In this document: in pieces, positions 1,729 to 57,100 of the stretch
Position numbering within the stretch: position 1 is the stretch's first letter
How the letters are laid out: every line of letters starts with the position of its first letter
Source of the DNA: Harmothoe impar
Lineage: Eukaryota > Annelida > Polychaeta > Phyllodocida > Polynoidae
Reading direction: 5' to 3'
Length of the DNA stretch: 64,000 nucleotides
Assembly: GCA_947462335.1 (NCBI GenBank)
Contig: OX381710.1
Span: 57,730,842 to 57,794,841, forward strand
Notes under the pieces: generated by a model
The model's input: only the letters and a program-made list of their open reading frames with translations
Told to the model about the DNA's origin: nothing
Database searches by the model: none
Position numbers and translations under genes: made by a program

Positions 1729-17221
<15,493 letters not shown>

Positions 17222-24047: not shown

Positions 24048-24317
24048 AGCACTGTGCGGCCCTTAAATGGTTAAGCCCTGTGACGTCAATCCAATCCAGT
24101 TTAATGTAGACTTAGAGAAAATAAAATAGAGAGACAGGCCATTTTGGCCAGGATTATCATCGGGGGGGGGGGTACTTCGATCACCATAGTTTGCTCAAAT
24201 CTTTGGGACTTCTCCTAAAGTGCCGTCCTTGGTATACCAGAGGCTATCAAGTATCATTTTGTTTGACATATCCACTACAGTAGCAGGAAGAGTATGTCTG
24301 TTTTTTGTATATACATG

Positions 24318-24474
24318 TGTAACGGTCGCGGAAAAATCGTCTGGAGAAAGCGGGACTCGAACCCACGACCCCCTGACTCCGGAGCCAAGTGCTCTACCAC
24401 TGAGCTACTTCCCCGTCTGACAATCTAACAGCGCCGTACGTTACTGGGTCGGTTCGGTAACCCCTGCCCTTACA
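24318..24474 (-). repeat. TRIM 3' LTR (in - orientation), 157 bp
   Basis: Starts TGTAACGG and ends CCCTTACA on the + strand. It carries the tRNA-like gene at 24342-24414. It is 8 bp longer than the other LTR through an extra CAATCTAA. Confidence 0.8.
24342..24414 (-). tRNA. tRNA-like gene in TRIM LTR (copy 1)
   Basis: 73 nt. The acceptor arm GGGGAAG pairs with CTTTCTCC-side bases (TTTCTCC) with two G-U pairs; the D stem is GCTC/GAGC and the T stem GTGGG/CCCGC with loop TTCGAGT. Box A is TAGCTCAGTGG (24397-24407) and box B GGTTCGAGTCC (24353-24363). A TTTTT terminator follows five bases after the discriminator A (24332-24336). The anticodon arm pairs well only with an 8-nt loop (CTCCGGAG), so identity is uncertain. 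It may be transcribed but not act in translation. No genomic CCA. Confidence 0.65.
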
Positions 24475-24704
24475 CAGCTCCCCCAGCCTCTATCATGCCC
24501 CGTAGCAGCCAATGATAGAAGCTCACAGTGCCGAACCGATCCAGCCAATTTGTTGACTTGACTCCATGCTGAACTCCAACTGCCCGTACTGGGAACCAAC
24601 TCTTCACTACCTGCTCCTCCAACTACCAACCGCCAGCAGGTGGCCAATCCCCAGCAAGTTGGGATGCTCCAACCGTCTAAGTCAACCGTATCAGCGAGTG
24701 CGCT

Positions 24705-24718
24705 CGCTTTCTCCACCA
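24705..24718 (-). promoter_or_regulatory. TRIM primer-binding site
   Basis: On the - strand TGGTGGAGAAAGCG lies one base inside the 5' LTR edge. It is complementary over 14 nt to the 3' end of the LTR-borne tRNA-like gene with CCA added (CGCTTTCTCCA plus CCA). Confidence 0.75.
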
Positions 24719-24719
24719 G

Positions 24720-24868
24720 TGTAACGGTCGCGGAAAAATCGTCTGGAGAAAGCGGGACTCGAACCCACGACCCCCTGACTCTGGAGCCAAGTGCTCTACC
24801 ACTGAGCTACTTCCCCGTCTGACAGCGCCTTACGTGACTGGGTCGGTTCGGTAACCACTGCCCTTACA
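24720..24868 (-). repeat. TRIM 5' LTR (in - orientation), 149 bp
   Basis: Starts TGTAACGG and ends CCCTTACA on the + strand. It carries the tRNA-like gene at 24744-24816 and a T5 terminator at 24734-24738. Confidence 0.8.
24744..24816 (-). tRNA. tRNA-like gene in TRIM LTR (copy 2)
   Basis: Same 73-nt fold as copy 1 with one change in the anticodon loop (CTCCAGAG instead of CTCCGGAG). Acceptor, D and T stems, boxes A and B and the T5 terminator are unchanged, which suggests either recent origin or constraint on the pol III parts. Confidence 0.65.
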
Positions 24869-25229
24869 CATGTGTAATTACCCAGGGTTATGGTACCTAT
24901 TACAGCCTGTACACAACTACCTGCCCACCCCCACAGAAAGCTGTCACTTCTATGTTGGGGATTTGATGAGTGGCTAAGAAATTAAAAATAGAAATAGGGG
25001 GGTGGCAGAGTTTATGTTATAAGAAGGTATAGGGAAAGGGAGGGAAGAGACTTGCTGGGAAGGAAAAGTCAGCCGAGAGATATGGTGCAGGGATAGTCAA
25101 GGGAGGGGGATACTGATGATCGGGAAGGAGGGGGGCTGTGTAATTGTAGGAGAGGCATGGACATGTGAATAACACGTGTAATTCATATGAAATGGCTATG
25201 GAAATAAATTTCATTTTGCTACCACATGG

Positions 25230-31242: not shown

Positions 31243-32569
31243 GGGTAGGTTCACCACTTTCAACCGGTATGATCCATGTTTTTTCATGAGCTACCTTTCA
31301 GGTCTAACTGCTTCTAGAGTTTTTTGTGCATATCCTTCAGAATTGAACCAAACTTTAGGTATTGCTCTGGAGAGTAAAATTCATGATGTCTTACAATGCC
31401 ATATTTCAGTTTACCGTATTTAATTCCATGATTTATCAGAGTATTCAGAATTGCCCCTTTTCACCCTAAGTCAGCCAAAATGCACCTTGAGTCAGCCATA
31501 TTACAACCACCAGAAATATGTGCAATAAGCCAGTAATTTCCTGATTTTCATCAATGAATTGACTGACATGAATGCATGCATCATATATCAATATGTTACA
31601 ACTAGCAATAGAGAAGAAAACAATTTATTGAATATGAAATAATCAAGACAAAGTCAGTACTGTACCGCAGGGGAATACAACTGCATTATGAGCTATCAAT
31701 ACTAGTAAATATTACTTGTATGAGCAATGAGGACTAAATATAACATTATAGACATGCAGTATGGAGTTCTATCCCAATGGGCACAGAACATTAAATCAAC
31801 ATTGACGACTGGTTATCATTGTTGATTCAATGTTGTTTCAATGTTGATTCAATGTTGAACAGAATTTTGTGCCCACTGGGATTGAATATATTGCCGGCTC
31901 TGCCCCCTCAACCCCTTACCCCCCCCCCTTTTTGTGTTTCACCCTTGCCCTCTATACACTACACAAGTAGGCCTATACTATCCTTAACCCTGTAGTAGAA
32001 GAGGGTATTCAGGGAGGAGGAGGGATTCACAAGGGTAGGGGGAGAGGTCTTAGACAGAAATTGAGGGTGAGAGAATTCCAGGGGGGATTCCAAAGAAGAA
32101 AACCCCATGGTTGACTTAGGGTATGAGGTGGCTGACTAAGGGTGAATTCATGGCTGACTTAAGGTGAAATGGGTATACCTTACAAAATCAGTCCTAAAAA
32201 TAATTTAGGAAAATAAGTTTGTTCAATAAAGTCATGATTTGTGTAATCTAGATACGTATCCAGCTCACAAAACTGATCGACACTGTGTATGAAAGGGACA
32301 AATACTTCAAATCATTTACCAAAGAGTATGAACAGTGGAGAGATTTTCATTCTCTGTTTGTCAAAACAGGTCAAACAGGGGAACTTCTGACTGATTTTAC
32401 AATATGAAAAAGAGTGATGATGCAAATGCAATGTGCAGTATATCTTTGGAAAACACTTCAATTCTTAAATCAGTGGGAGTTTATTGTCACCAGATGCATA
32501 CTAAACTTGTAATTTCATGTCAAAAGTGGTTGACTCAAGCTATGAATTTGACTTAGGGTGAACCTACCC
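31243..32569 (+). mobile_element. 1.2-kb TA-type DNA transposon remnant, copy A
   Basis: Ends GGGTAGGTTCACC and GGTGAACCTACCC; right flank TA, left flank TC (decayed). Over its whole length it matches the reverse complement of 60476-61679. It contains repeated CCCTAAGTCAGCC units near the ends of its interior. No transposase frame was found, so it is non-autonomous. It holds a nested 108-bp element at 31773-31880. Confidence 0.8.
31773..31880. mobile_element. Nested 108-bp MITE (CCCAATGGGCAC ends)
   Basis: The inverted ends CCCAATGGGCACAGAA and the complement of TTTTGTGCCCACTGGG bound an interior of ATTGATTCAATGTTG repeats. AT flanks both sides. The related element at 60476-61679 lacks this insert and shows the empty site. 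Confidence 0.75.
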
Positions 32570-33058
32570 TACTCACTGCACCTGTATTTCCGTTCCCCCC
32601 TCTCCCCTCTCCCACAAGATCATTTCCAATATGTTTATCCCTGTCTGCCTCATTAATCCCCACCCATACCCGCCCTTACCCCGCCCCTTTCCTCCACGCT
32701 CTATATGCATGCCTTCCTGCCTCCCCTTCTCCTTCTTACGTGCTTGCTCCCTCTCATGCCTTCCAGTGACCTCTTCCCTCGTTCCCTCCTTTCCTGCTAG
32801 TCTCCCTCTATACACTGCCCTCTGTCTACACACATAGCAGCTATCCATGGCCTGCAATGCCTCACGGTGCGGAGGGCAGTCACCCAGATACCAGTGTGGT
32901 GCACGGTTGTCGCCTGTGAGCTGCTCAGGGTGGTGAGTTGCTATGAGCTACAGGCACCAGCCTAAAGCTTCACCATAGTCGGAAACAGCAAGGAATGCTT
33001 CAAAGGTAGATAGGAAACTGGAATTATCTCCCCGGAGTGTATTATTAATACAGCTATC

Positions 33059-39100: not shown

Positions 39101-42100
39101 TCAGCAGGTGTAGAGCTTTAATGCAGCCAATATCTCTTATTGCTGGATTTGTGTAACTAAAGATTATAAACTCATCAGATTACTTATCAGAACCATGTTA
39201 TTTTCCTATCTTATTGTCTGTTACTGGTTAGACTCAGTAGTTCTCCTTCTATAGATGGTCTGCTGCCGTCCACATAACCCTGCGGCAGTCTATACCGTGA
39301 TATAACAGCATGTAGCTTGTGTCCCAGGTGTGTACACGGCCGGGTCTGCAGCATGGAGGCAGCTGCTGACAGACAGCTGGGAGGAGGAGCTGCTCGGCCA
39401 CACCCCACCCACACACCTCACACTGAGACCTGTCCTGTTAGAGAACCACTACCAGCTCACCTACAGGCACATACAGACAGGTGAGGGAGTTGAATATGTT
39501 ACACAGAAGGTATTCAAACAGGAAAATAAAGTAAAACGATTAATTTATTACTATTTGATCACAACAAAGAGAATACGCTGATCTCCTTTTCAAAACACTG
39601 TGTAAGTGTGCAAAGATGTTTCTTCTAATAACTATGTTCTTTGCCATTGCAATTTGTCATGGGTGAAATTACATGGTCAATTTAAATTGTCTTTTTTATG
39701 ACAACTGGCTTCAGAATATAGAGGGGTTTCATGTAATATCTCCATGTATCTATTTATAAGTGTATTCCAACTATAGGGCACTGTTATACATTTATATAAC
39801 TGTGCCTTCATAACCATCAAGAAGAAAACATGACATTTCGTTGCATAATGGGATTTCTACCTGGTTTCACATATTTCTTTATCAATTTTAAGCTCAAATG
39901 TGTCCAGCCTAAGGTGTGTATCATAGGGTGAATTGCATTAAACGTTTTTTTTGGGACCCCTCTAGTTCTGATTTGGGCAATAGGCCCCTCTACCTCCATG
40001 TTTCCCTATGCTGAAGAGGTAAGTTTTGTGACTTGTGCATATTGTAGAATAGGGTTTTTTTGAGGGGGGGGGGGACAAACATATTCAGCCCCCCCCCCCC
40101 CGCCCCCCTGCCCCCCCCCTCTCCTACGCCACTGTAATGTCCTCCACAAGGGCTGCTCGATGTGGGCACGGATCAGTTTCAAGGTGGGCTACCCAATATT
40201 AGTGGAGGTGGTGTTTGGACAGGCAAATTAATATGGTATAGTTCTGAACCTCGACATTAGATGGCCCCTACTATAAGGGGGTTTCCTCCAAAGCAGGATA
40301 TATTTTCCTTAGTACAATAAATTCGAAATAGATTACTAAGTTTTGGAATAGGTAATGATGAACAGATTTTCTAAACGTTTAGAAAGAAATGAATGTTCTC
40401 ATTTGAATGACCAAAATGAGCTTATCCAAGTATACCATAGACCCCATTCCAGTCACTTTCGGATTGCCTTAAATATGGGCAACTGTTTGCTGTAGGTAGG
40501 AACTGTGGGCATGACGGCCAATGAATCCCTAGATCAGAGAAATGTGACTTGTCTGCATGGCTCGAATATAATGATTATAGTTCACACTTATTCATAATTG
40601 AATTGGAATAATATGATTCGACCTTGGGTGCATTACTTAGCAGCACCTCGGATATGTTCACTCCCCTGGGGGGGGGGGGGTAGGCCCTGAAGGGGAGACA
40701 AAAAGATATTACAAAGAGTTATGACTGCTCAATAATTTGAAGAAAAACAAGAGATTTAGAAAAGATTTTTGGTGCCACATTATCAAATTTGGCAACCCAG
40801 CCAGGACCCCATCTTAGCTCACTTGGGTCCAGAGCAAAAGCAAACGACGAAACCTTCTGGTCTGAAACAAGGCAGCCAACTTAGGGCCACTTTGGGAGCT
40901 GACTGTGGCCCCACATTGGGCTACATAGTGTTTTCTACTAGGAATATTGAAGTGCGTCAATATATTGACTAAAATCATCAGAGGGATAGAGAGGTTTCAG
41001 GCTATTCTGTTGGTGAGAGCAGTGTGTGTACCCATGCAATTTAGAGATAAATAAACGTTCAGCTGGAGATGTCCAGGTCAGTAAGGTTATCTGGGACTGG
41101 GGACGCTCACTCTCCAAGCAGACCTTTGGGTGTGTGGTGGTTCGTAGTTAACTCTAGGTTAAAGAACAACGATCACGGCAGTTTCCAGGTGCGAGAATAT
41201 ATCGGTCTTTATTCACAAGAATAACAACTCCAGTTCCTTTACTAGGGAACAATCAGTGTAGAATCAATACACACATGTAAATCAGGTTTCTCTATAAATA
41301 GAGGAAACGGTCAGTATACAACTCTTAGCATACAACTCTGTCCGCACGGTTGGACATGTGAAGTCTCTCGTCAGTCGGGCCTGCACTGACTGCCCTCCAG
41401 GTAAACACACGGGTCTTATATAACACCGGCTCTTAGGTCACGTGGCCAGGTGGGTGGGTCGGCCGCCCACCTGAGAGCGGCACACGGTTACCTGAAGAGG
41501 ACCTGCGCCCTCTCCCGGGAACTGTGTGCACTAGCTCCAGGTGGAGAAGCCGAGTAAACAGACGTTACCCGGAAATACCGTGTATGAGATTAATATGTAA
41601 TATCATGCCCCTACACTACCCCCCCTAGACAAAACTAGGTGGTAACAAATATGTACGGTTTTCCTAACATATAGAAAACACTTTAGACAAACGTATTATA
41701 GTTATTGTCTATACAGTAACTTAGGGGCGTAACATATTATCACGACGATTAGACAAGCGAGATCAATGAACTCATTAAAATTTTATGGCATTACACTGTA
41801 CTAGCAACCATAATACATTTTCATACACACAATCGAACGGCTTGACACATTTCGATATGACTTCCTTATTAAGTTATTACTCGGTTATTAAAAAATGCGC
41901 GTGGGGCGTGTATATATTTAAGTTGAACAGAAAAGTTAATTAAAAACCAGTCCTGATAAGGACTCACAACCGCCAGCGTCTTACATTGATATGTGTTTTT
42001 AATGAATACATTCACACAATGGATAATAGTAACCACAGCCTTTGTTTGAGCTGGGTAGTCCGATTATATAACCGGAGACCTTAATACCTCTCGCAACATA

Positions 42101-45100
42101 TAACAGAGTCGACACACACGACAATACACAATGGTATAAATGTATGATTTACACATAGTCTTAACGACTGCACACACAGACTTTTTACGAGTAGCCACAT
42201 CTCCTAGCTTATCAGATCATACAATCTTCATATATAGCATGTTATGAAACCCGATTCATATGGTAAGTATGAAGACACCATATTGGAACACCTGAGGTGA
42301 TATGTATCACATAATAATGACTCATTTATATATTAAAAATGTTTTAATGAGTAACCTGGCAGTGTACCCGGAAACCCTTACAATTAAATATAGCTTACTG
42401 GTGATCTAGTTGTGGACAAGGTGCTCTCCGCTTCTAATAGACGAATGAGTAAGGTGCTCTCCTCTTCTTAATACTGTTTCTTGGATAAATATCACCCGAA
42501 GGTAAGTTCATATGTACATAGCTCGCTAAGTATCCCGTCCTCACTCCAGTAATGTTCATGACATATATAAATATAATCCGGCTGGAAACCACCAGTACTG
42601 TCCGTTTAACACGTAATCCTAGCTCCAGGAATGTTCATGATATATATAAGTAGAACTGGAACCACGAGCATTGTCTGTTTGACACGTAATCCTTGGACGG
42701 GAACAGTTTATAACACAGCATAATAGTATCAGGAACACATCATGGTAACGTATCCCAAAAGTTAGATTCAGGGACGTTAGATTAGTAGCTTCCCGGTGGA
42801 GTCCTGATTCCCCATCGGGTCGGCTATAGTTGAGAGTTGAGTAGTTAGGTAAGTCCAGAGCTTCCACGGAAGGTTCCCCCCGCGTTGGTCCATATGCATC
42901 TAAAAAGATGCCCCTCTTTCCCTTGAGAAGGGAAACCCCGTCATAAAAAAATTATGACGTCTGATTAACTGAAAGAACAATTAATCTATCCGGAAACTAT
43001 TATAGTTTCCTCCTCTATTTCTAAAAAAATTAGAAATAGACTCTGAACCTTCTGTTAGTATTTTAACCTAATGGTTCATCTCTCGCCCTCATTAAGGCAA
43101 GCGCGTGCTCAGCCGTGCCATCCCAGGTATCGAGAGTCACGCCAAACACCCCGTAAAATTTTACGTTCATATCTTGTAACCGTTTGGTTAACTTCTCGTT
43201 CTCCTGACGAACGAAACCTGCTGCGGCCTCAGCATTCTTCTGGCCTGTAGCAGCTTCCCTTGACTTTTTAGACAAGTAGTCAGCATTGCCGGCAGCGACC
43301 AATGCTTTCTCCTCCCTATGGGCAATCTTTAGACCATGCGTAAACAGGCCTAACATCTTGGTGTTGTATTCCACCGCTAGCTGTCGTTGGGACTCCTGGA
43401 ATTCTGTAACAATTCTCTGTCCCACCTCGCAGCTCGCCTTCTCTTCCCGAGAGAAGTAGTTAACTATCGGGACGTATTTTAATTTTACGCCACCGGTAGT
43501 TTCCGTGCGGGAGGTACCCGCGACTGGCTGGATGACAACCGGTTCCTGGCTTGCAGGAATCATGGGTTTTACATCCACTCGCGGTGCTTTAATAGCCGCT
43601 GCAGTCTTCGGGACAGTTATACCCCGAGGAGTCACCACTGAGATCAACGATTTGGGCTCAGTTTTCACGGTCAAACTCTCCATACCCCGGGTTGGGGTGG
43701 TGGGAGACCGGACGTCCCTGGGGGTGGGTTTTGCAGTTGTCCCCAGATGGTACGTCAAAGGCAGGGAAGCCTTTGTTCTGGTAGCCGGGCTTTCTTTAGG
43801 CCGGGCACCTCCACAGTCAGGTTGACTGGTGGCACTGTCTGAACTGCTCAGACGTCTGGTACGGTACTCCATGTTGGTAGCCGCCGCCGTATGTCCACCG
43901 GAATCACGTTTCCGATCTTTCCGGTCTGTATACAGCGGGTCTGGATACTCGCGATAGTATTCGCGACCTTCCGGGGCCTGATAATTCCCATAATAGGAAT
44001 TATCGAGTTCCTCCAAAGTGGATCCGGCATGTCTCCGTTTTGGTCCGGGAGAGACCGCAGGAGACCGAGAGCGGTCTCGGGCAGACCGGCTCTTTCCCCG
44101 GGAACCACCCCGGGTTTCCGGCTGGCGGAAACTACCGCCGCCTCTCCGAGAAGTACGGGTAGTGCATAACACCGTATACTCCTCGTCATTCATGGCGAAC
44201 TTGTTGCGTCCGTCCACTCTGGCTATCCTAGCTTTGAACTTCCCATCTGCGACTTCGCAGAAAAAGGGAGTTGCCGGCCGGATTTTAGCCTTCTGATCGT
44301 CCGTTAGTGACTTGTACTGGTCACAGACGGCATCATGTAGGGCATTCACACGATTGCGAGCTACACTGATTCCCATATTATGGCAATCCTTCATGTGGCG
44401 CATGAGCTCACCTCTACGGGGTTCTAGACACCCGTTGCACAGTTGTGACTCTCTACCTACTGTAATATCACAGTGGTACACCACACAGTGGTGCATGTGA
44501 TTCTCACAGAGGTGTCGCAGGAACCGTTGCTTTGTTACAAACACGGTTCTGTCGGTGCCTATCGTGTTTACACACGTGGCAAATGGGCACCAATTTCTTT
44601 CCCGTTGATTATACCAACGGGTGCTCGCAAAAAGAAGCTTTTCTTTCTGCTCCTTACTGTAGTAAGTTTCCGGCAGGATCCTGAGTTGATCTAGCCACTG
44701 CTGATAAAAAGCAGACGGAGGACGGTCCCGGGGTGTATTCCGGATCCAATCCTCATCGTCACTCTGACCTTTACAGTTGGTCGCGAGTGGACATCCAAAA
44801 TTGGTAGGGCCAATTGGACACTGTTCCCACGAATTGGGAATAAACACGCGGAACTTATTATTCGCGTTCTGCCAGACTCGCCTCATCACGTCATTAGGCG
44901 GGATGGGGTCCTCCGGGTCGTTTCCTGGTTCTTCAGCGTTAGCCGGAACCTCTCCCTCCTCCTCATCCGAATGAGCCGGACTACGGAGAGGGCTGAGACG
45001 AGCTGGGTTGATTACCAGCGCAGCCGCAACCGCGGCCGCAGCACCAGCTGCGGCGGTTACATCTGCCACAAGGGCCGGGGTAGGGACGGTGACGCCCGTG

Positions 45101-48100
45101 GTAGAGGGTGCTGGAGTATTGGCTTCGTTGGTATCCATAGCCTCATCCGTAGCTTCCACAGCCCGTGGAATGACGGGCTGTCCCCCGGAAGGTTGTTCCG
45201 GTAATCCTTCTGCTAACACAGAATCCGGCAAGTTAGCTAGTCTTGCCTTTTCGTTCCGGTGAGATTGACGTCCTCTCTCCTGGACAAACTCGTCCGACTG
45301 ATTACTGTCGGCCGAGCTCGACCGGTTCGAGGCCCCCCTCTCACTTTTACTACCGCGCCCCCTAGGTGTGGCTTTCAGCGCTTTTATTCGCGCCTTCTCT
45401 TCCGCACTGGAAGATCTGGTTCGTACTGTCCGAACCGCCTCATCCACCAAACAAGATATGGCAATATTCCGTTTGAGGTTGTGAGTATCCATGTAGGCCT
45501 CTATAGTGGCTACATCCAGGATGTACGAGACTACTCCCTGCATACTAGCGGCAGCAATTTCGTACTCCTTCCGGGTTTTCGGTTCACGGAGTTTCCCGAT
45601 ACGTGCCCGGTACCTGTTGACGCCTGTCAACAACATCCCGGCAACTCAACAATTCGGGTCTAGGGACAGAATTGGGAGTGCTGGCATTAACCGCTTTATG
45701 TCTGCGATATGTAAATCGAAGACAGCTCTTCGTAAGCAGTAGCATACGAGTAGTCCTTTTTGGAGTGCCTCCCAGTACACAAACCAGTCCGGGGGCAACT
45801 CTTCCTGCTCTTCCACTAATAGGAAGAGCAATATCGCCTGCCTTGTTAGCGGGTCAATCCGGTGGGGAGCTCCCTCCGCCGTGAGTCGTAGCACGTCCTC
45901 GTGCAGTTCCACTTCACGTCCATCGTAATTGGACATGAAGCCTCCTAGTGTGGGCACTGCCGGGCGGGGTTTTTCAACGTCCTCCGGCGGTTCTCCATGG
46001 TACAACGGACCCGGGTCCTGATACTCAGCTTCGCCGGTATCAGCTTGGCCGTCAGCTGGGCTGATGGCCTCAATGTCTAACCCCTCCAAGTAATTGGCGG
46101 CGACATTCGCAGGGCGTAGCGATGACTGAGAGTCAACGTCGACGTCCATTATTCCCTCTTGTCCCAGGAAATCCATAGATTCCTGGTCACCGAGGTCAGG
46201 TTGATTATCAACCACATTCCCTCCGCTAGCGGAGTCGCCCTCCTCAAGAGGGTCCACCTGTTGGTGGTCTGTCTCGGAAGACATGTTTGTCACACTCAAG
46301 AAAAGTGTTATTGATGGATTATAGGGGGTCCACCTCCCCACTGCAAGAATGGTCGTGTCCGAGCCCTCACGTCTGCTCTGGACCTCCTCTCAACCCCAAC
46401 TGGCGATTCCCGACGAGCCGCGTGCCTTATATACGGTGCGCCACCGCGCATGCGCAACCCCGCGCGCCCCGTGACCTAGTTCCTTGGAACCAGGTCACCC
46501 GCGCGTTCAATTGTAAACAGGTACCCTCATTCCACGTGTTAATCCTTACGCTCTATCAACTCGTCGAGAGTATCAATGAAATATATATGAATGGCATAAT
46601 AAAGCACATTCACCGGATTATCCGTCCATCACCCATGGGATCCTTGACAGGGGGACTATCACGATCATTCCGAGCGTACTTACTTCCACACATAACTGAT
46701 TACAACATTTAAATATTTAACAAGATTACAGGACACCACACTCGTTGTGTACCGGCTTAGGTTATACCGTCCCTAGCTAGGAACCGGGGACTGCGTCTTA
46801 TGTTTTTAGGCATAACATTAGACCTGGTTCTAGGACACGCCTTTTCTAGAGTGGATTTAGCCTTAACCACACCCTTCCGGGTCCTTTTCCCTTCAGCCAG
46901 CGAGACTTTATTAGCCGCCTTCTTCCCGGATCTTTTTGGGATGACGGGCTTATGCACCATTAGTTTCCGGGAAACCTCCTTCCGCGGCCTTCCGCGTTTC
47001 CGGGGAGGTTCCTTTACTAATTTCCGCTGTTCACTTTCCTCTATCAAAGTATCAACCTCCAACTCATACGAGTCCAGGGACAAATCTCTCCCCTTCCACT
47101 CTCTTAGTCGAGCTACATTAGATTTATACATCTTTCCCTGTAATGAACGTATCACTACAGTACTGTCACTTACTATGCGGGTCACCACAAAGGGTCCATC
47201 CCAATTACTAGCAAGTTTCAGAGTCGATAACGGCTCATGTAATCTTACTACCTGATCACCAACTTTGAATCGTCGCGGCTTAAGACCTAGATCATAGCCG
47301 GTCTTCTGCCAGGTGGCATTCTTCTGTAGTTCAGTTCTCACCAATTCATACGCATATTTGAATTGATCTCTTAATGACTCCACGAACATAACATGGCAGG
47401 GGGTTTCCGGGTTCATTCCTACCACCCCAAATACCAGGTCAGCGGGCATTATTAAATCCTCCCCAAAAACTAACAGATTCGGGGAACAGGAGGTACTAGA
47501 ATGGACAGTGCTATTATATGCATGACACACATAATCACACTGCTCATCCCAGTCGTCCATTTTATCATTCACCAGGGATTTTAACACCTGAATCAATGTA
47601 CGATTGAATCTCTCAACCATTCCATCACTTTGTGGCCGGTAGGGATTTGTTCTCGTCTTACAAATCGCCAATCGGTGACACATTTCCTGCCAAAGATCAG
47701 ATTCAAATTCCCGACCTTGGTCACTATGCATCATTAGGGGAACCCCAAGATGCAATACCCAACCTTGAACAAAAGCTTTTGCACAGGTTGCCGCCTTGTG
47801 ATCCGCTAATGGAAACACTCTTGTATACTTGGTATAATAATCAGTGACGACCATCATACAAGTATTACCCTCAGGGGTAGTTTTAAACCCACTGATTATA
47901 TCTATTGCTACTCGCGCAAATCTTACTCCAAACAACTCCTGGGACAAAGGCATTTTACCCATCCCAGGCCCAGGTTTGTTTTTACAACAATCCGGGCAAG
48001 TAGCAATCCATCTTAATAGATCACTACTCATCCCTGGCCAGTAATATCTCCTTTTCAGACGTTCCAGGGAACGCTTTTTCCCGAAATGTCCACTGGTCAG

Positions 48101-51100
48101 GTGTCCATGGCAATAATACATAACATCCCTCCTCATGCCGGAAGGTATTACCACTTGCCGGACTCTCCTACCGGATGGATTAATCTTCCACCGGTAGACG
48201 ATTCCGCTCTGGACCTCTAACTCTGCCCATTGAGCTATTAGCCTTCTCATTTCCCGGTTCTCCAGGGAAATCTCAGGCCGCGGGGGCCGTATCTTCCTAG
48301 GTAACAATACCAACAACCGGCTATGGTTAGGATCCTTTTCCTGGAACTTCCGGATGGTTCCCATGGACCACTCCAGAACCCCAGTTCCCTTGATCTCAAA
48401 GGGAATCCTTGCTCTGGCTATGACAGCCTCATGCTGACCACAGTCATCACAGTTGGTGTTTTCGCACTTCCTGATAGGACGTCGGGAAAGTGCATCAGCA
48501 TTTACATGCTTTATCCCAGCTCTATGCTGGATCTGACTTTGCTCCAAACCGAACTCGGAAAGGTGTGCTAGCCAACGTCCAATCATTCCTTCCGCATCTT
48601 TGAAATTCAATAACCATCTCAAAGAGGAATGATCGGTTCTTAGCGTAAAATCTGACCCCCAAAGGAAATGTTTGAACTTTTTAGTATAAACTATTACAGC
48701 CAACAATTCCCTTTTAGTGGTACAATAATTTCGCTGAGTCTTACTCATAGTATTACTAGCAAAGGCAATGGGAACCTCCACTCCGCCTTGGACTTGACTG
48801 AGGGCGGCCCCAATACTCTCATTGCTAGCATCTGTATCCAATACAAAATGACCATCCGGGGTGGGATACTTTAACACCGGGGTCTCCACAAACAACTTTT
48901 TTATTGCTAAGAAAGCTGTGTCCTGTTCCTTCACCCATGGGAACTCTTCCTTCCTATTTCCGGGAGTCCAGTGTGACAAACACTGGATCGGATAGGCTAC
49001 CCGGGAATACCCCGGCAGGAAATCCCTATAATATGAGCAGAATCCTAGGAAGGATCGCACATCTTTAGGACCCCTGGGGACCTCCCATTCAGTCACACTC
49101 CTGATCTTTTCCGGATCCGCCTTAACCCCCTCGGTGGAAATAATCCGCCCTAGGTAGTTAATATCCTTCTTAAACAGATTGCATTTCTTTGGTTTCAATT
49201 TGAGACCGTTAGACATGATTCGGTTTAAGACTTCCTCTAAATTACTTAAACAGTCCGCAAAGGTCTTTCCAAACACAATTACGTCATCCAAGTAAACTAG
49301 ACATTTCCGCCATAATAAATCACTTAACAGTGTCTCCATCATGGCTTCAAAGGTGGCCGGCGCATTACATAACCCAAATGGCATCACCTTATATTCAAAC
49401 AAACCGATATGGCTGGAAAACGCAGTTTTCTCCATATCTTCAGGCTTCATGCCTACTTGCCAATACCCGGACTGTAAATCCAGGGTACAGAACCATTCAT
49501 TCCCTCCCAGGGAATCAATCGTCTCATCTATCCTAGGAAGAGGATAGGAGTTCTTTTTAGTCAACCCATTCAGTTTCCGGTAATCAATACAGAACCGTAT
49601 GCTACCATCCTTCTTGGTTACCATACACACAGGGGAGGACCAAGGACTCATGCTGGGAACAATAACATTATCCTTCAGCATTTTCGCTATTTCTTCCTCA
49701 GCTACAATCTTCTTCTTGAGGGGTAATCTCCTATAAGGAATCTTAAAAGCGGGATTATCCCCGGTTTTAATTTCATGCAATACCTTATTGGTTCTCCCCA
49801 GGGGTTCCCCTGGGGCCGCAAAAGCTTGCCTGCATCTCTTCAGCATAGCCTTTAGGGCTTCCTGATCATTCTCATCCGTTATGGACGATCCTGTTAACAA
49901 CTTAGTTAACTCTTCATGCAATTCCTCTTCCCCTCCTTCTTCTAACCTCAGGTCTTGGTGGCTACCGGTGACTGCCTCCGCAAGTATCACTTTCCCAACT
50001 TCAGTGCCTTTCTCAAGATATACTGTGGAGTTTCCGGGGTTGGAAATGGGTGTCACTGTCCATCTGGAATTCCCTACTAGGGTATCCGCAGATTCCAATC
50101 CCTTCCGGGATAATACAGCCATATCCGGCTCGATTACCGCTAATCCTCTCTGGATTAGCCTCCCTGAACTGACTAACACGTCACAGGTCATTCCCGGGGG
50201 AATCTTCACAGTCTGTGCCACACTAGCGACACTACTTATCACTCTCAACTTACAGAGTATGGTCATATCATACGGGTATTCAATTTTCAACTTCCCACTT
50301 TTCGGATTCAAAGTCGCACCGAAAAGCGCCGCAAAATCCAAACCAAGAATACCATCATCTTCAATCTCAGCTATGGTCGGGGCCCAAACAAATTCTTTCC
50401 CGGCCACAGAGATTATCAGAAAAGTCTGTCCAAATGTCCTCATTCTGGTACCATCGGCCGTACAGGCGTTTACCCTCATTGTGAGGTTCTCACACATATT
50501 CGGCAATAAGCTGATGAATCTCTTAGAGACCATGGAGTGGCTAGCTCCAGTATCCGTAAGAAATTCCCCAGTCTTTCCTTGTACAGAACAGGAAACGTAC
50601 CACCTCTTCCCATCAGTTACTGAGGGATTCCTAGTAAACCGGTGAAGGTCACTATCAGTGCTCAGGTCGAATCCACATCCTTTCAGGTGTTCCAGACAAG
50701 GATGACCCGGGGGAAGCCTGGTTCCTCCAACCTTAACCAACTCTTTGGTTATTGACTCCTCTAAACTGGCACTAGGTTTCCCATACGCGCACCCCTGGGC
50801 GCCTGTTGTACCAGTCTCCCCAGCCTCATGGTTTCCGGGATGTACGGTCCCATCTCCCTTCTTGCTGGACGCATTCACTGCTAATGAATCTTCACCGCCA
50901 ACGTCGGTGATAATCTGACATATTTCCTCAGGGGTTACCGTGCTGCCATCCTCGGTAACCCCCTCTAATTTCCCGAAACCTCACTTCTTAAAACAGGTTT
51001 CTCTGCTTTGCATTCAGATGCAAAGTGCCCTTTGACTTGACACCTGTAACACTGGACAGTGTTACGATCGACCCTAGGGCGGCGCCTGGTTTGATTATCA

Positions 51101-54100
51101 AACACCTCGTTCATGCGTTTAATCATGGACTCCATTAAGGTATTAAATGAGTTTCCTGACGCATTTGTTTTATCCGGAGTGGTCGTCTCCGGGGTCTGGG
51201 TTTTCTGACTGGGTTCAGTCTGAGGCTCCCGAGTGTTGGGTTTCCGCGGGGTTTCCGAATAACCTTTGTTACTAGGAAGCTTCCCGGAAACTGGGGTAGA
51301 GCTAGATTTCTGTCGACCCTTGAATTTCAGGGCGTCTACTCTCTCCTCCCCTTCAGATTCCTCTGCGGAAGAATCGTCACCATCTAAGGAATGTTCAATT
51401 CCAGAGACGCGCTGTCCCCTATTAGCGGGTATCATACCAGCCAACAGTATTTTCTTCTTGTCATGTTGATCAATTGCCATGAACAAATCCGCTAGGGAAG
51501 ACCCAGCTTCCCAAGCTCTACCACAGACTTTAGCATGTTCAGGATCACTCAATCCACTAATAAATCTTACAAATAGGGATTCTATGTAATATTCAGCATC
51601 CCTACTCCATTCTGGCCTAGCCTGCCGCAATAATCGCTGCAATTCTAGCCCAAAAATTTTAGCAGATTCCTTTGGTTTCTGCGTTCTTCTCTGAAACAGA
51701 GTCCAGTGATCTACTGTCACCATTTTCCCAAAGGTATAACACGCTAATACTTCCAGCTGGTCGTATGTAGCCTCCGGCCCGTAAGTGTCCCTCCATTCTT
51801 CTACCACTATCTTACCCGGGCCGTCACTCAACCATATCACAAAAGCTCCCAAGGATTCCTCCTTGTTCCAGCAATTGTACTTACAATCATCTAAAAGGGA
51901 TTGATATTCCTCCTTCCAGGGTCGCAAACCCCTGTAAGGCTTAGTCACGCGTGCAGTTCTCTTAGCGGCATAATTAGAATGCACTAATTGACCTGACATG
52001 CGTCTACTCCAGGCCAGTAAGTCTGTACCGTCTTGACCTCTACGGGAGCAATCTAGTCCCAAATTACCTATGGCTGGGTCTCGATTATGTAATCGGTGTT
52101 CCGCCGGGGTCATTGTGACCCTTCGGTTCAAAGGAGTGTTTTTATGCACTGGATTTGACCTTCCCTTCGTTCTCCGCTGGGACCCCTTATTCAAACTACC
52201 CCTCGGCCTATTTTCAGGGTCTTTATTGGCTCCCGAATGTGTATCAGTGGTCGGAGGTGGATATGAATAAGTTGCATCCGGGCAATATCTATAATTACCC
52301 TTGCTATCATAATCTCCCGGGTTCCCATATTGAGCCGGGTCATCTCCCGAAAAGGGGTTCAATGAGCCATAACTATGGTTCACTACTTCATCTCGAAATT
52401 TATTTTTATAATGTCGAGACACTTCCTCCTCTGGAGACATTTCCCTGTTAACCTGACCAATACTGGCATGATTAACTGGTTCCCGTTCAAGAGAGTGCCC
52501 GGTGACATTCACTCTCCTTGAATCCTTCCCTCTGTTTTTATACACAGAGTCTTCCACATTCCTCAATCCATTATCATTAATAAATGGATCAAATTGAGGT
52601 AATGCATCCACCTTCCTAGCAGTAAGAGTGCTGTCCAGAACAGCTTCCGGCCCGATAGCTGGAACTTGTTCCTCCCCCTGCTGTTCCATTGCCTTCGACA
52701 ACTCACCCCGCAGGAGAGTTTTCCTGGCTTCCAGGGAACAGACAGCTTCCACCTCAGCTTTCCGTTTCCTTTCTAACTCTTCCGTTTCTTCCAGGATTTG
52801 CATCCTGGTAGATTCGTTATCCTTGACCAACTGGTCTCTGCCCTTCTCGAGCTCCTCTGTCCCCTTCTTCAGGACATACCATTCTCTAGAGTATTGTTTC
52901 AACTCCTTCTCATACTTCTCTTTAAGAGATTCGGAGTGTTCATTCTCCTTCCGGTTCTCAGCAATCTTTGCTTGAATCTTTTGGAATTCATGCGATTCCT
53001 GAGCAACCTTCTTTTTCATATCAACCGTTCCCTCTCTTCTATCAGAGTTCCCTTTACCCTCTGATTCTCAGAGAGGATCTCGTCCCTTTCTTTTACCAGG
53101 GATGTCAATTCCTCAGTCAATGCAGCATATTGGTCTTCCATTGACTGCTTGTCCAATCGGACATTCTCCCAGTAGAGGTCATCCTCTTCCCGAGCCAAAT
53201 GCTCGTCATATTCCCTCTGGAATCTCCCATCCCCTACATAGGGTTCTACCCAGGAAAGATCCTGCACTTTCCTCTTCTTCTGCTCTGGCTTCAACCCTTC
53301 CCCAGGGTCCATCCCTGCCACCTCCAGGCGAGTTGATTCCAACTCCCCTTCACTCAGCTCTGGGCCAGAGCCGCCCAGGCTACCACCGGTAGCCATTGTC
53401 TGTCCACTAAAGGACTGTCTGTCCACTAAAGGACTTCCTGTTCAGTATAACTCGAACATATTCCCGAACAATTACCTTGTTCTGCTACCTTTACTGCTAC
53501 TGGTCACGGCACCAGTGTGGTGGTTCGTAGTTAACTCTAGGTTAAAGAACAACGATCACGGCAGTTTCCAGGTGCGAGAATATATCGGTCTTTATTCACA
53601 AGAATAACAACTCCAGTTCCTTTACTAGGGAACAATCAGTGTAGAATCAATACACACAGGTAAATCAGGTTTCTCTATAAATAGAGGAAACGGTCAGTAT
53701 ACAACTCTTAGCATACAACTCTGTCCGCACGGTTGGACATGTGAAGTCTCTCGTCAGTCGGGCCTGCACTGACTGCCCTCCAGGTAAACACACGGGTCTT
53801 ATATAACACCGGCTCTTAGGTCACGTGGCCAGGTGGGTGGGTCGGCTGCCCACCTGAGAGCGGCACACGGTTACCTGAAGAGGACCTGCGCCCTCTCCCG
53901 GGAACTGTGTGCACTAGCTCCAGGTGGAGAAGCCGAGTAAACAGACGTTACCCGGAAATACCGTGTATGAGATTAATATGTAATATCATGCCCCTACAGG
54001 TGTATTGTGTAAGTACACCCATGGGAGCCTCTGCATGGAGCTGTTCCCATGATAGGACATGTAGTTGTAGATAATTTTCTAGCTTGAGGAATATAACTTG

Positions 54101-57100
54101 CGTCATTATAGGTAGCACCCTCCCCCTTATAACCATGCATCCATGTGCATCCATAACCTACAACCCCCATTACCCCATACTGACCTTGTTTGTACAGATG
54201 TAATTGAGACTGGTCAATCGTCAGGACAATCTGTAGGACTCTGGCAAATCGATCCTTACCATCAATTATGTACTGTACCATCAATGTCAATGTGTGCAGC
54301 TCGGGGTGTGCTGGTGGGAGCATTGCCAGTTATATTTGGTGTTACCGCTTGATGCCCTAGCAGATCAATATGGATGACAGTGATCCAGGTCGGGGCGGGG
54401 GGGGGGGGGTGAACCTATACATACATACACCAGGACAGCCAAGGAAAAAAGGCCCTCCAAGGAAAGTATCAATTCTGGGTGGACAATTCCAGTGGAAGAA
54501 CACCTACAACCCTATATAATCAAAATTATTATGCTAATTATCAAACATGGTAACTTTGTCATACATTTGGTCAGAGCGTTTAATATCTGAATAGTATTTG
54601 CACTCTGTTTTCAGCATTATAAATCTTTATCAGGCCTTATCATTACTCCATAGGGAATGCATCACTGCCTAGCTAACAGAAAATGTTTCGAACACGTTTT
54701 AAAGCTCTTAGAAGCCTCTACCCAGCTAACAAATGTTTTCCAAAACATATGAAATATGATTTCAACCGGAAATTCTTCTGAATGACGTAGTTAATAATTA
54801 CATTACATGAATACAAAGGAGCACTCATGTTTTTCTCCATCGACGGTTTGCCTTACTATGTTTGACTTAACCTCAGTGGTGAACAATCCTCATGAATATT
54901 TGGCCATGATATTCACACAGGCTTCTGTTTGAATCATGTATACTAGTCCCACAGATACATAGAAACACAACATTCATTCCCATATAGGCCTTTGGGGCGA
55001 GTTGAACCAGCAGAGAAATCCCTTCTGCAGGTATTTCTTTGCCTTAGTTCAAGTACCCACTGCCAAGGACCAATCAAAAGGCTCCTCTCATGTGCGGATG
55101 GTAGTTCCGGCAAGGATAGAAGGTGTTGATAGCTATCTTTCGGACAAAACTGACAGTGAGGGCACGATATTTGACATTGACAGCAATAAAAACAATAAAA
55201 TAGAATTTAAAAAAATCATTTTGGGAAATTGGACAAAAGAAAATAATTTTAAATCATTTTTCGGTGACTCTCCTCGGACACCGTACCTAACAGTACTCCT
55301 GTCTCATACAACATGTGCCGGGTTTGTTTGTTCTTGTCTTACAAATCATGACCACTCATGTCATATCTAACTCCTCACCAGCCCTCAAGACGCTGAACAA
55401 GCTGCACGTCACTGTCCTGCTTGGACCTCACAATGAGGCTCTGCGTATTGCCGCCGCTGGTGCCGACATACCGTACGTCATTGTGACGCGTCTGATGACG
55501 TCACCTATATTGTCACCACACGTCCAGAGATTCAGCCGTCATGAAGACATTACGTCGGGTGGGCAGGAGCTGTACGTCTGGCCGTCACAGGGGACACTAT
55601 GTCAGGCAGTATGTGACGTAGTCATGACGTACAAATGGACGCAGGCAGCTGTACTATATGTAGACGAAACAGGTATGAAGAACTTTATTTCTAAAGATTA
55701 AGTTTTTATTTGAAGTGATTTCAAAGTGCAAACATCTGAGACACAGTTCCTTCAAGCCATTGATTGTCTTATATTACCTTATATTCATCTAAAGGACAAT
55801 TTACTTGTAAACAAAATCATGGCTTATGATAGGCCATATGTCACCGATGGACTGTGTGATCCAGGTTTATACACGAAATCGAAGAGTGGTACATTATATG
55901 TCTACCTATATAGATAGTCATGACTTAGCCTGGAGAGTTCCGTAAAGATAAAAGAATCAGAACAGGTTCCCTGCATTGAGACAAGAGCCTGCACCTTTAT
56001 ATCAAGGGCATGTTGCGTTCAGCTATACGTATGACCTTTGACCCACAGGCTTGCAGCTGATCGGTCAACTCATGTCAAATGAGAAGCTGTTGGTCCGCTC
56101 GTGGCGGCTCCCCTTGGATGGTTCCCAAACTACGATACGAGATCACCTCCTCTTTATCCGGGAGATTCAACTTCGTCAGATCATTATAACAGCGGAGAAG
56201 TTGGTCGTGGAGGTCATACTGGAAGAGGTAGGTCAACCGGTAGATGGTTTTAGAGGTTATACTAGAATGGATAGCAATACCATTCGGGTTTAGTTGTTTC
56301 ATTGTGTTTATATTCGTCATTGGTCTAATGGTAACAGCTGCACCAAAGGTGCCGGGTTGTATCTCTACAACAACGAGGTGCCTGCATACTATGGGTCCCA
56401 ATACGACCCACAGTATCCAGATTCCAGTTTCAGCATCTGTCAGTCAGTGTTATACATGATGCATGGATGGTTATGACTATTGGACCCTCCCGAATCATCT
56501 GCTGCAGCATATTGTGCAAGAAGTGCTGGTACACGTCGGAGCCTTCCCTACCTAGTTCATGCACGTGGCTTCATGTCCAAAAGTGAGGTCTGTTTCCCTA
56601 TGCATGGTATACGATAAATGCATCATACTGAATGAAGCCTATTCTGTAGACTGTTCCAATGAGCGAGCAGCGAAAATCTACAAAATTGTGCATAACAAAA
56701 TGTCCTTGTCATTTTTAGCAACTTTTTTTTTACTAGATTCACTGGGTCTGTTCCTCTTTCTGCCACTGCTAATGCTCCAATTGCGCTGCAGTCGGCCCAT
56801 TCCAAGCCACTATCAGTACATTACTTATTCACAGACTCATGTGGCTTGGTAGTCACTATCTGTGCTAAGGCCCATCACCTGGACTGATGGACCCATACAT
56901 GATAGAAACACATGGGGTGATGATTGATGCTGAAAGTATATTACAGGCCGATCACTGCACTGTCACAGCCGAAATACGATACCAGGCTTTAGATATTCAT
57001 ACGCGGAGTGACATTGGGACATCGATAACAATTATAATTATATGTGTTACTTAAAATATGATTAGAGTGGTGTGTGAATATCCTCATCATCAATTTCAGA

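What the first reader, a model, noticed from the sequence alone, without database searches (positions are those of the whole stretch)
24318..24868. Miniature LTR retrotransposon whose LTRs carry a tRNA-like gene matching its own primer-binding site
Seen: 157/149-bp direct repeats with TG...CA ends, a CATG target duplication, a 245-bp non-coding interior, and in each repeat a 73-nt tRNA-like gene with boxes A and B and a T5 terminator. The primer-binding site (24705-24718, - strand TGGTGGAGAAAGCG) is complementary over 14 nt to the 3' end of that same tRNA with CCA added. Known: plant Cassandra TRIMs carry a 5S rRNA gene in the LTR. Inference: this element could make or recruit its own primer by pol III. 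The LTR copy lacks CCA and has a genomic-type terminator, which argues for a captured tRNA gene rather than copied primer. I do not know of an animal family like this.
Basis: partly seen in the sequence, partly recalled or inferred. Interest (0 to 1): 0.92.

Follow-up and report, generated by a model that had tools for sequence, protein, structure and literature searches.

The report
Mini-retrotransposon carrying its own tRNA-like primer
A tiny, multi-copy animal retrotransposon carries in both of its end repeats a tRNA-like gene whose tail exactly fits the site where its own copying should start, and no ordinary host tRNA gene that I found fits as well, so the element may bring its own primer instead of borrowing one.

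Summary
24318-24868 (minus strand) is a 551-bp LTR element: LTRs of 149/157 bp, CATG target duplication, no recognised coding, a tRNA-like gene in each LTR (Rfam tRNA 54 bits), and a PBS complementary over 14/14 nt to that tRNA plus CCA. The kind is known: Helenus, tRNA-bearing TRIMs (Kojima 2024). But that paper reports no complementarity between LTR tRNA and PBS. Here it is shared: 39 of 39 readable PBSs in 40 compared copies. By pattern count the genome holds 251 LTR-PBS junctions with this PBS and none with the PBS that sampled host tRNA-Ala(AGC) (12/14) would imprint. All 65 hits with this tRNA 3' end (two patterns; contexts followed by GA not covered) look element-derived by eye; none is a stand-alone tRNA gene. 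A few loci keep LTR-PBS followed by reverse-complemented LTR tRNA and U3 (once another family's PPT and interior), joined through TGG: fossils of a copied LTR-encoded primer, or of strand transfer misled by the same complementarity. Best reading: a Helenus variant primed by its own LTR-encoded tRNA-like RNA. Not shown: RNA, CCA addition, priming. Host species unknown.

The parts
24314..24317 (.). Target-site duplication, CATG (beside 3' LTR)
24318..24474 (-). 3' LTR (157 bp), TGTAAGGG...CGTTACA
24332..24336 (-). T5 run, pol III terminator-like, 3' LTR
24342..24414 (-). tRNA-like gene in 3' LTR (8-nt anticodon loop, last 11 nt CGCTTTCTCCA)
24475..24719 (-). Interior (245 bp), no recognised coding
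24475..24488 (-). Purine-rich tract GGCTGGGGGAGCTG next to 3' LTR (putative, imperfect PPT; read by eye)
24444..24544 (-). Strong predicted RNA hairpin enclosing the PPT and the start of U3 (z -4.3)
24705..24718 (-). Primer-binding site TGGTGGAGAAAGCG, complementary to the LTR tRNA-like 3' end plus CCA
24720..24868 (-). 5' LTR (149 bp)
24734..24738 (-). T5 run, pol III terminator-like, 5' LTR
24744..24816 (-). tRNA-like gene in 5' LTR
24869..24872 (.). Target-site duplication, CATG (beside 5' LTR)
41133..53998 (-). Separate Gypsy-type element of the kind that could mobilise the TRIM (same LTR start 9/10, 1-nt C spacer, 4-bp TSD); its own PBS is different

Best explanation
It is a Helenus-type TRIM (a non-autonomous LTR retrotransposon, probably moved by Gypsy proteins) whose LTR-encoded tRNA-like RNA is its primer for reverse transcription. 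Inferred cycle: (1) pol III starts at boxes A and B of the LTR tRNA-like gene. Stopping at T5 gives a short pre-tRNA of about 87 nt; read-through to the T5 of the 3' LTR gives a roughly 489-nt genomic RNA that ends in the same tRNA-like structure. (2) Normal tRNA 3' processing and CCA addition turn CGCUUUCUCCA into CGCUUUCUCCACCA, on the short RNA or on the 3' end of the genomic RNA. (3) This 3' end anneals over 14 nt to the PBS of the same or a sister RNA and is extended by a Gypsy reverse transcriptase. (4) Plus-strand synthesis copies the primer end back into the PBS, which keeps PBS and LTR tRNA matched. Shown: anatomy, copies with differing target duplications, a near-uniform PBS, zero count of the host-Ala(AGC) type PBS, and no stand-alone tRNA gene among the 65 hits examined. 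Inferred: transcription, processing, priming, partner.
For: 14/14 match. In 40 compared copies (window plus the 39 other full-length hits; 1778 first-look candidates, only 40 scored, two short partial matches not used): 39 of 40 PBSs readable and all 39 exact; of 76 LTR tRNA 3' ends read, 74 are CGCTTTCTCCA; 34 of 40 have matching 4-bp flanks, in 22 sequences. Host tRNA-Ala pattern: 232 hits; ARAGORN on 30 of these loci found 39 tRNAs, 31 of them Ala(AGC), of which 26 would give PBS TGGTGGAGAACCCG (12/14), 2 give 11/14 and 3 are printed with an extra base; Ala(TGC/CGC), 3 genes, give 11/14. Whole-genome pattern counts: 251 of CGTTACACTGGTGGAGAAAGCG, 0 of CGTTACACTGGTGGAGAACC. T-arm plus CGCTTTCTCCA not followed by G: 45 hits; followed by GC, GG or GT: 20 hits; all 65 read, all judged element LTRs or LTR-derived fossils. 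Fossils: T-arm+CGCTTTCTCCACCA occurs at 4 loci, each joined to an LTR. L082 (window's family): LTR-C-TGG-reverse complement of LTR nt 1-133, flanked by CTAC/CTAC. L080 (same place as L064): 199 nt identical to its own LTR. L083: a different family's tRNA, U3, PPT and interior, 369 nt. L163: a junction with the PBS lengthened to 20 nt matching LTR tRNA+CCA (by eye). The LTR is a complete pol III unit; no TATA or poly(A) motif in the element.
Against: No RNA data. The fossils can equally arise if the plus-strand strong-stop PBS mis-anneals to the LTR tRNA of a genomic RNA, or snaps back on itself; L165 shows a switch of that sort. L064 also holds a second inverted LTR piece (106 nt) and no matching flanks; L083 shows no matching flanks. 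In L081 (same place as L068) the copied tRNA differs from its own LTR tRNA (58/66). L157 has this PBS beside an LTR tRNA ending that does not match it. The host tRNA search did not cover genes followed by GA or with another T-arm, and few host isotypes were sampled. tRNA-Ala could prime with 10 contiguous pairs. PBS (0.18% minor letters) and LTR tRNA 3' end (0.23%) vary less than U3 (1.1-1.35%) but the tRNA end not less than the interior (0.23%) in this young sample. The anticodon loop is irregular. T5 in the 5' LTR should stop most pol III before the interior.
Confidence: 0.6

Rival explanations
1. Host primer, captured relative. The primer is a normal host tRNA (tRNA-Ala or an unseen isoacceptor), and the LTR tRNA-like sequence, used only as a pol III promoter as proposed for other Helenus, happens to descend from the same tRNA type.
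For: The Helenus PBSs described by Kojima fit host tRNAs. Among 28 recalled human tRNAs, Ala is the nearest both to the PBS and to the LTR tRNA-like sequence. Host tRNA-Ala(AGC) matches 12/14 with 10 contiguous. The window's own Gypsy PBS matches recalled human tRNA-His at the same 12/14.
Against: The PBS shares two bases with the LTR tRNA that sampled host tRNA-Ala(AGC) lacks; the host-Ala(AGC) form of the junction counts 0 against 251 of the LTR form; none of 65 hits with this 3' end was judged a stand-alone gene.
Confidence: 0.25
2. Leader hairpin self-priming. The 11-nt inverted repeat between the LTR tRNA 3' arm and the PBS works as a fold-back structure in RNA or DNA (as in self-priming elements) and the CCA match is incidental.
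For: A perfect 11-nt inverted repeat lies across the LTR-PBS junction; L064 and L082 are what snap-back of plus-strand strong-stop DNA would leave.
Against: TGG, the complement of an added CCA that the LTR does not encode, stands one base after the LTR in all 251 pattern hits (the pattern asks for it) and in 39 of 39 readable copies; L083 copies another family's sequence, so it is not an intramolecular fold.
Confidence: 0.1
3. Two tandem tRNA genes or a composite repeat, not a retrotransposon.
For: Two near-identical tRNA-like genes 402 bp apart.
Against: 34 of 40 copies have matching 4-bp flanks in 22 sequences, and termini are TG...CA.
Confidence: 0.01

Closest known systems
Helenus (tRNA-bearing TRIMs; Kojima 2024, PMC10886601; parts 1-4 of 6 of the text plus the figures/tables section read)
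   Same: TRIM under 1000 bp, tRNA-like sequence with boxes A and B in both LTRs, PBS and PPT, 4-bp TSD as reported for animal Helenus, probable Gypsy partner.
   Different: Kojima could not find complementarity between LTR tRNA and PBS; here it is 14/14 and shared across families of one genome. The PBS is Ala-like, a type not among those the text lists for hymenopteran, vertebrate and bivalve Helenus (Lys, Leu, Trp, Arg, His, Ile, Pro, Glu, Ser).
Cassandra and Ajax (5S-rRNA-bearing TRIMs; from the same paper)
   Same: pol III gene inside the LTR of a TRIM.
   Different: 5S rRNA, not tRNA; Cassandra transcription is said to end in the 5S sequence of the 3' LTR with an 18-bp overlap; no link between LTR RNA and PBS stated in the parts read.
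Artificial PBS plus matching engineered tRNA-like primer in MLV vectors (Lund 1997; seen only as described and cited in passages of PMC3185771; the paper itself is not held)
   Same: A PBS matching no natural tRNA can be served by a matching supplied primer.
   Different: Engineered, primer supplied in trans; here it would be natural and carried in the LTR.
Self-priming LTR elements such as Tf1 (named in a passage of PMC6934838; mechanism recalled)
   Same: The element's own RNA provides the primer.
   Different: Tf1 folds its 5' end back (recalled); here the candidate is a 3' tRNA-like end with CCA.
biv-TRIM of bivalves (PMC6934838: outline, one section and passages seen)
   Same: Animal TRIM.
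   Different: No unambiguous PBS; no LTR tRNA gene mentioned in what I saw.

Membership tests
Helenus | TRIM: two LTRs, under 1000 bp, no coding capacity | tested here: met
   551 bp, LTRs 149/157, interior 245 bp; the one 121-aa open frame has no Pfam match above threshold
Helenus | tRNA-derived sequence with boxes A and B inside the LTRs | tested here: met
   Rfam tRNA 54.1 and 53.9 bits; boxes read
Helenus | PBS after 5' LTR and PPT before 3' LTR | tested here: met
   PBS one base after LTR; GGCTGGGGGAGCTG before 3' LTR, an imperfect PPT judged by eye
Helenus | 4-bp target duplications (animal Helenus) | tested here: met
   34 of 40 copies
Helenus | Reported property, not part of the definition: no complementarity between LTR tRNA and PBS | tested here: not met
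   14/14 in the window; 39 of 39 readable PBSs in copies
Helenus | Sequence relation to a catalogued Helenus family | not testable with these tools
   Repbase and the paper's supplement not available; host unnamed
Helenus mobilised by Gypsy | Shared PBS or internal sequence with an autonomous Gypsy | tested here: inconclusive
   Window Gypsy shares LTR start (9/10), C spacer and 4-bp TSD, not PBS; no tRNA-free LTR seen beside this PBS in 25 of 28 hits with next base G or T; other next bases not examined for this
Self-primed element | No host tRNA matches the PBS as well as the element's own RNA | tested here: inconclusive
   65 of 65 hits judged element-derived, but GA contexts and other T-arms not covered
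Self-primed element | Element RNA shown joined to nascent cDNA | not testable with these tools
   needs RNA work

The most novel reading that the evidence does not exclude
The genomic RNA itself ends in a tRNA that is matured and CCA-tailed by host enzymes, and that 3' end primes reverse transcription on the PBS of the same or a sister family's RNA: a tRNA-tailed, self-priming retrotransposon lineage whose PBS is continually rewritten by its own LTR. L082, L064 and L083, where the copied stretch carries U3, and once PPT and interior, upstream of tRNA-CCA, would be its fossils.
Probability: 0.3. Interest if true: 0.92.

Novelty: new variant of a known kind. Interest (0 to 1): 0.8.

Why it matters
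LTR retrotransposons and retroviruses are taught as depending on a borrowed host tRNA. A natural element that encodes a matched primer would remove that dependence, explain why these families keep a tRNA cloverleaf with an irregular anticodon loop, and give a reason for tRNA capture beyond a pol III promoter. It also means that many 'tRNA genes' predicted in such a genome would belong to a mobile element. The question is directly testable with small-RNA reads.

Tried and rejected
Tandem tRNA genes: rejected by termini and target duplications. Copied-in primer tRNA as the origin of the LTR tRNA: a primer copy would be antisense to the element and carry CCA; the LTR gene is neither. The window's Gypsy as primer partner: its PBS is different. 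Special conservation of PBS and tRNA 3' end: below U3 but much the same as the interior. L001/L002: viral contigs sharing one 17-mer, with other short hits to the tRNA part; treated as chance, not relatives. Other viral and prokaryote scans gave no relative. Paper text search for PBS strings listed 20 of 60 papers, none of whose titles concerned such elements. In one search an inverted-repeat shuffle count let arms overlap (75 of 1000); redone without overlap (34 of 3000). In one search two of 31 junctions (L047, L048) are a 3' LTR beside a CTGG target duplication, not PBSs; of the other 29, 18 match exactly, 9 differ by one, 1 by two, 1 by three. That sample was partly chosen for exact PBS or exact tRNA end, and its text match missed L157. 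L070 (3' LTR followed by 22 nt of primer-like copy) sits in a locus where the expected 5' LTR is not found and is given little weight. Among the 65 hits, L061, L073, L074, L075, L077, L078, L087, L094 and L135 are degraded or cut and show only one recognisable side; they were assigned by eye. tRNA isotype of the LTR gene: not assignable.

Full report
What is there. The stretch 24318-24868 reads, on the minus strand, as LTR (149 bp), one C, PBS TGGTGGAGAAAGCG, the rest of a 245-bp interior that ends in a purine-rich tract, and LTR (157 bp), between two CATG duplications. The LTRs differ by 4 substitutions in 149 bases and one 8-nt gap. A 121-aa stop-to-stop frame crosses the interior; Pfam gives it one sub-threshold hit at E 0.18. 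Each LTR holds a 73-nt tRNA-like gene that Rfam's tRNA model scores at 54.1 and 53.9 bits against a threshold of 29. The four stems can pair, with some G-U pairs; box A and box B are intact; the anticodon loop has 8 nt; a T5 run follows a 5-nt trailer. RNAfold's minimum-energy structure of the 5' LTR gene is near the cloverleaf, that of the 3' LTR gene is not. I found no TATA box, no poly(A) signal and no other T4 run on the sense strand. So each LTR is built like a complete pol III tRNA gene. A product ending at T5 would be about 87 nt; a read-through product from the 5' to the 3' LTR about 489 nt (the start point 5 nt upstream is assumed).

The match. The last 11 nt of the LTR tRNA plus an added CCA are complementary to the PBS over 14 nt. 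No other place in the 64-kb window scores above 11/14, and 5000 shuffled interiors never exceeded 12/14 at the PBS position.

The kind. A paper search found Helenus (Kojima 2024, PMC10886601). I read parts 1-4 of 6 of the text and the figures/tables section. [quoted passage not shown] Animal families make 4-bp duplications and show PBS similarity only to Gypsy elements. The window element meets these criteria. The same paper says that no complementarity between the LTR tRNA-like sequence and the PBS could be found, and concludes that the LTR tRNA does not contribute to initiation. This element is an exception to that statement. Searches for Helenus, TRIMp3, tRNA-like primers, self-encoded primers and LTR tRNA genes listed no other description of it; only the listings were seen, and searches listed 25 of 42 and 15 of 123 papers.

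Copies. The window lies in an unnamed 1.51-Gb genome of 736 contigs. The element search met 1778 first-look candidates and scored 40. I compared the window with the 39 other full-length hits. In 34 of 40 the 4-bp flanks agree, with 22 different sequences; two differ by one base; four do not match, and in two of those a terminus was not found by my text match. The PBS was readable in 39 of 40 and exact in all 39; of 76 LTR tRNA 3' ends read, 74 are CGCTTTCTCCA and two carry one change. In 36 copies both LTRs could be compared: 16 have no substitution between them and 12 have one, so the family was active recently. PBS (0.18% minor letters) and tRNA 3' end (0.23%) are about as conserved as the interior (0.23%) in this young sample.

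Other families. A search for the tRNA T-arm plus CGCTTTCTCCA not followed by G gave 45 hits. They reveal a second family with LTRs about 690 bp apart (LTR 223 bp in L064, start TGTAGGGGCACGG), a third with a different tRNA body (CAGGTTACGTGATCTG), and others with CAT-type loops. All keep the same tRNA tail, but these searches asked for that tail, so this is not an unbiased sample. Where a junction was read the PBS is the same, apart from decayed cases. L157 is an exception: this PBS stands beside an LTR tRNA ending that does not match.

Is there a host tRNA that fits? The 45 hits were all read (30, 13, L082 and L083), as were all 20 hits of the complementary pattern with next bases GC, GG or GT. 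By eye all 65 lie in element LTRs or in LTR-derived fossils; nine are degraded or cut and show one recognisable side only. None looks like a stand-alone tRNA gene. Genes followed by GA, the usual context of the element itself, could not be separated, and genes with another T-arm were not sought. The host's tRNA-Ala genes, the nearest isotype by a recalled human panel, gave 232 pattern hits, 100 of them listed. ARAGORN on 30 of these loci found 39 tRNAs, 31 of them Ala(AGC). Of these, 26 end so that the PBS would read TGGTGGAGAACCCG, 12/14 to the real one; 2 reach 11/14; 3 are printed with one extra base. Three Ala(TGC/CGC) genes reach 11/14, and the five others, of four isotypes, reach at most 8/14. 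In LTR elements the PBS is copied from the primer during plus-strand synthesis (established knowledge), so a host-Ala primer should leave its own letters. By pattern count the genome holds 251 junctions of the LTR type and none of the host-Ala(AGC) type; the 251 were not read one by one.

Fossils. The T-arm plus CGCTTTCTCCA followed directly by CCA occurs at four loci, each joined to an LTR end through one base. In L082, from the window's family, an LTR is followed by C, TGG and the reverse complement of LTR nt 1-133, identical in all 133 nt, and the whole is flanked by CTAC on both sides. L080 (the place of L064) shows the same in the second family over 199 nt, but a second inverted LTR piece of 106 nt follows and the outer flanks do not match. 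In L083 the copied stretch comes from a different family: its tRNA is 59/74 identical to that of the adjoining LTR, and the 369-nt copy runs on through U3, the PPT and the interior; its flanks do not match. In L081 (the place of L068) the copied tRNA is 58/66 identical to its own LTR tRNA. L147 and L165 are further, degraded or rearranged cases, and L163 is a junction with the PBS lengthened to 20 matching nt (read by eye). Under the primer reading, the primer was an LTR-derived RNA with U3, or more, upstream of tRNA-CCA; an end exactly at the U3 start is where RNase H cuts beside the PPT (established knowledge). The competing reading is that plus-strand strong-stop DNA, already ending in the PBS, annealed to the LTR tRNA of a genomic RNA or of itself. 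That also ends at the U3 start, and L165 suggests that such switches occur. Both need the PBS/LTR-tRNA identity; only the first shows priming.

Partner. The window holds a separate Gypsy-type element (41133-53998) with protease, RT, RNase H and integrase domains, LTRs differing at 2 of 483 bases, and a CACC duplication. Its LTR starts TGTAGGGGCA against TGTAAGGGCA in the TRIM; both have one C before the PBS and 4-bp duplications. Its PBS is different, 12/14 to a recalled human tRNA-His. If a Gypsy of this sort moves the TRIM, the TRIM does not use that element's primer. Of 28 further PBS hits with next base G or T, 25 were seen in context (20, five in earlier loci); all have this LTR type upstream, but 131 bp of context does not tell a TRIM from a longer element with tRNA-bearing LTRs. 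Three were not fetched.

Verdict. The element is a Helenus TRIM by definition, with a feature not reported for Helenus: the LTR tRNA matches the PBS, in many copies and several families, while the sampled host tRNA-Ala does not match as well. I put 0.6 on the LTR-encoded RNA being the primer, 0.25 on an unseen host tRNA or tRNA-Ala, 0.1 on a fold-back role of the inverted repeat.

Noticed in passing
window 41133-53998 (-): Gypsy-type LTR retrotransposon with long open gag and pol frames (LTRs 2 of 483 bases different) and two extra ORFs downstream of pol, one of 860 aa, without Pfam match.
   Followed up: partly
window 24444-24544 (-): Very stable predicted RNA hairpin (-47.8 kcal/mol, z -4.3) whose 14-nt arms (one mismatch) join the interior to U3 and enclose the PPT; an inverted repeat of that quality appeared in 2 of 300 shuffles.
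   Followed up: partly
L157 (G000:C6:17320340-17320470): Same PBS beside an LTR whose tRNA-like ending does not match it: a family or recombinant that may be primed by another family's RNA.
   Followed up: no
L165 (G000:C21:18707620-18707750): Antisense interior and PBS joined to the LTR trailer, then LTR end, PBS and reverse-complemented tRNA: looks like a template switch at the shared 11 nt.
   Followed up: no
L127/L128, G000:C14:63581422 and 63590078: Two nearly identical tRNA-bearing LTRs 8.7 kb apart in the same orientation with the same following bases (ACATGTTTAG); could be a segmental duplication or a larger element with tRNA-bearing LTRs.
   Followed up: no
G000:C11:47271000-47388000: Dense array of tRNA-Ala pattern hits, nearly all identical and on one strand.
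   Followed up: no
window 5075-5464 (+): Fragment resembling a DDE_Tnp_4 (Harbinger-like) transposase: HTH_23 above Pfam's cut-off, DDE_Tnp_4 below it.
   Followed up: no
window 31243-32571 and 60474-61679: Two inverted copies of a repeat, about 90-91% identical.
   Followed up: no
window 55291-55701 (+): Possible receptor ligand-binding exon (ANF_receptor, weak, E 0.0058, below Pfam's cut-off), consistent with an animal host; no solved-structure match.
   Followed up: partly
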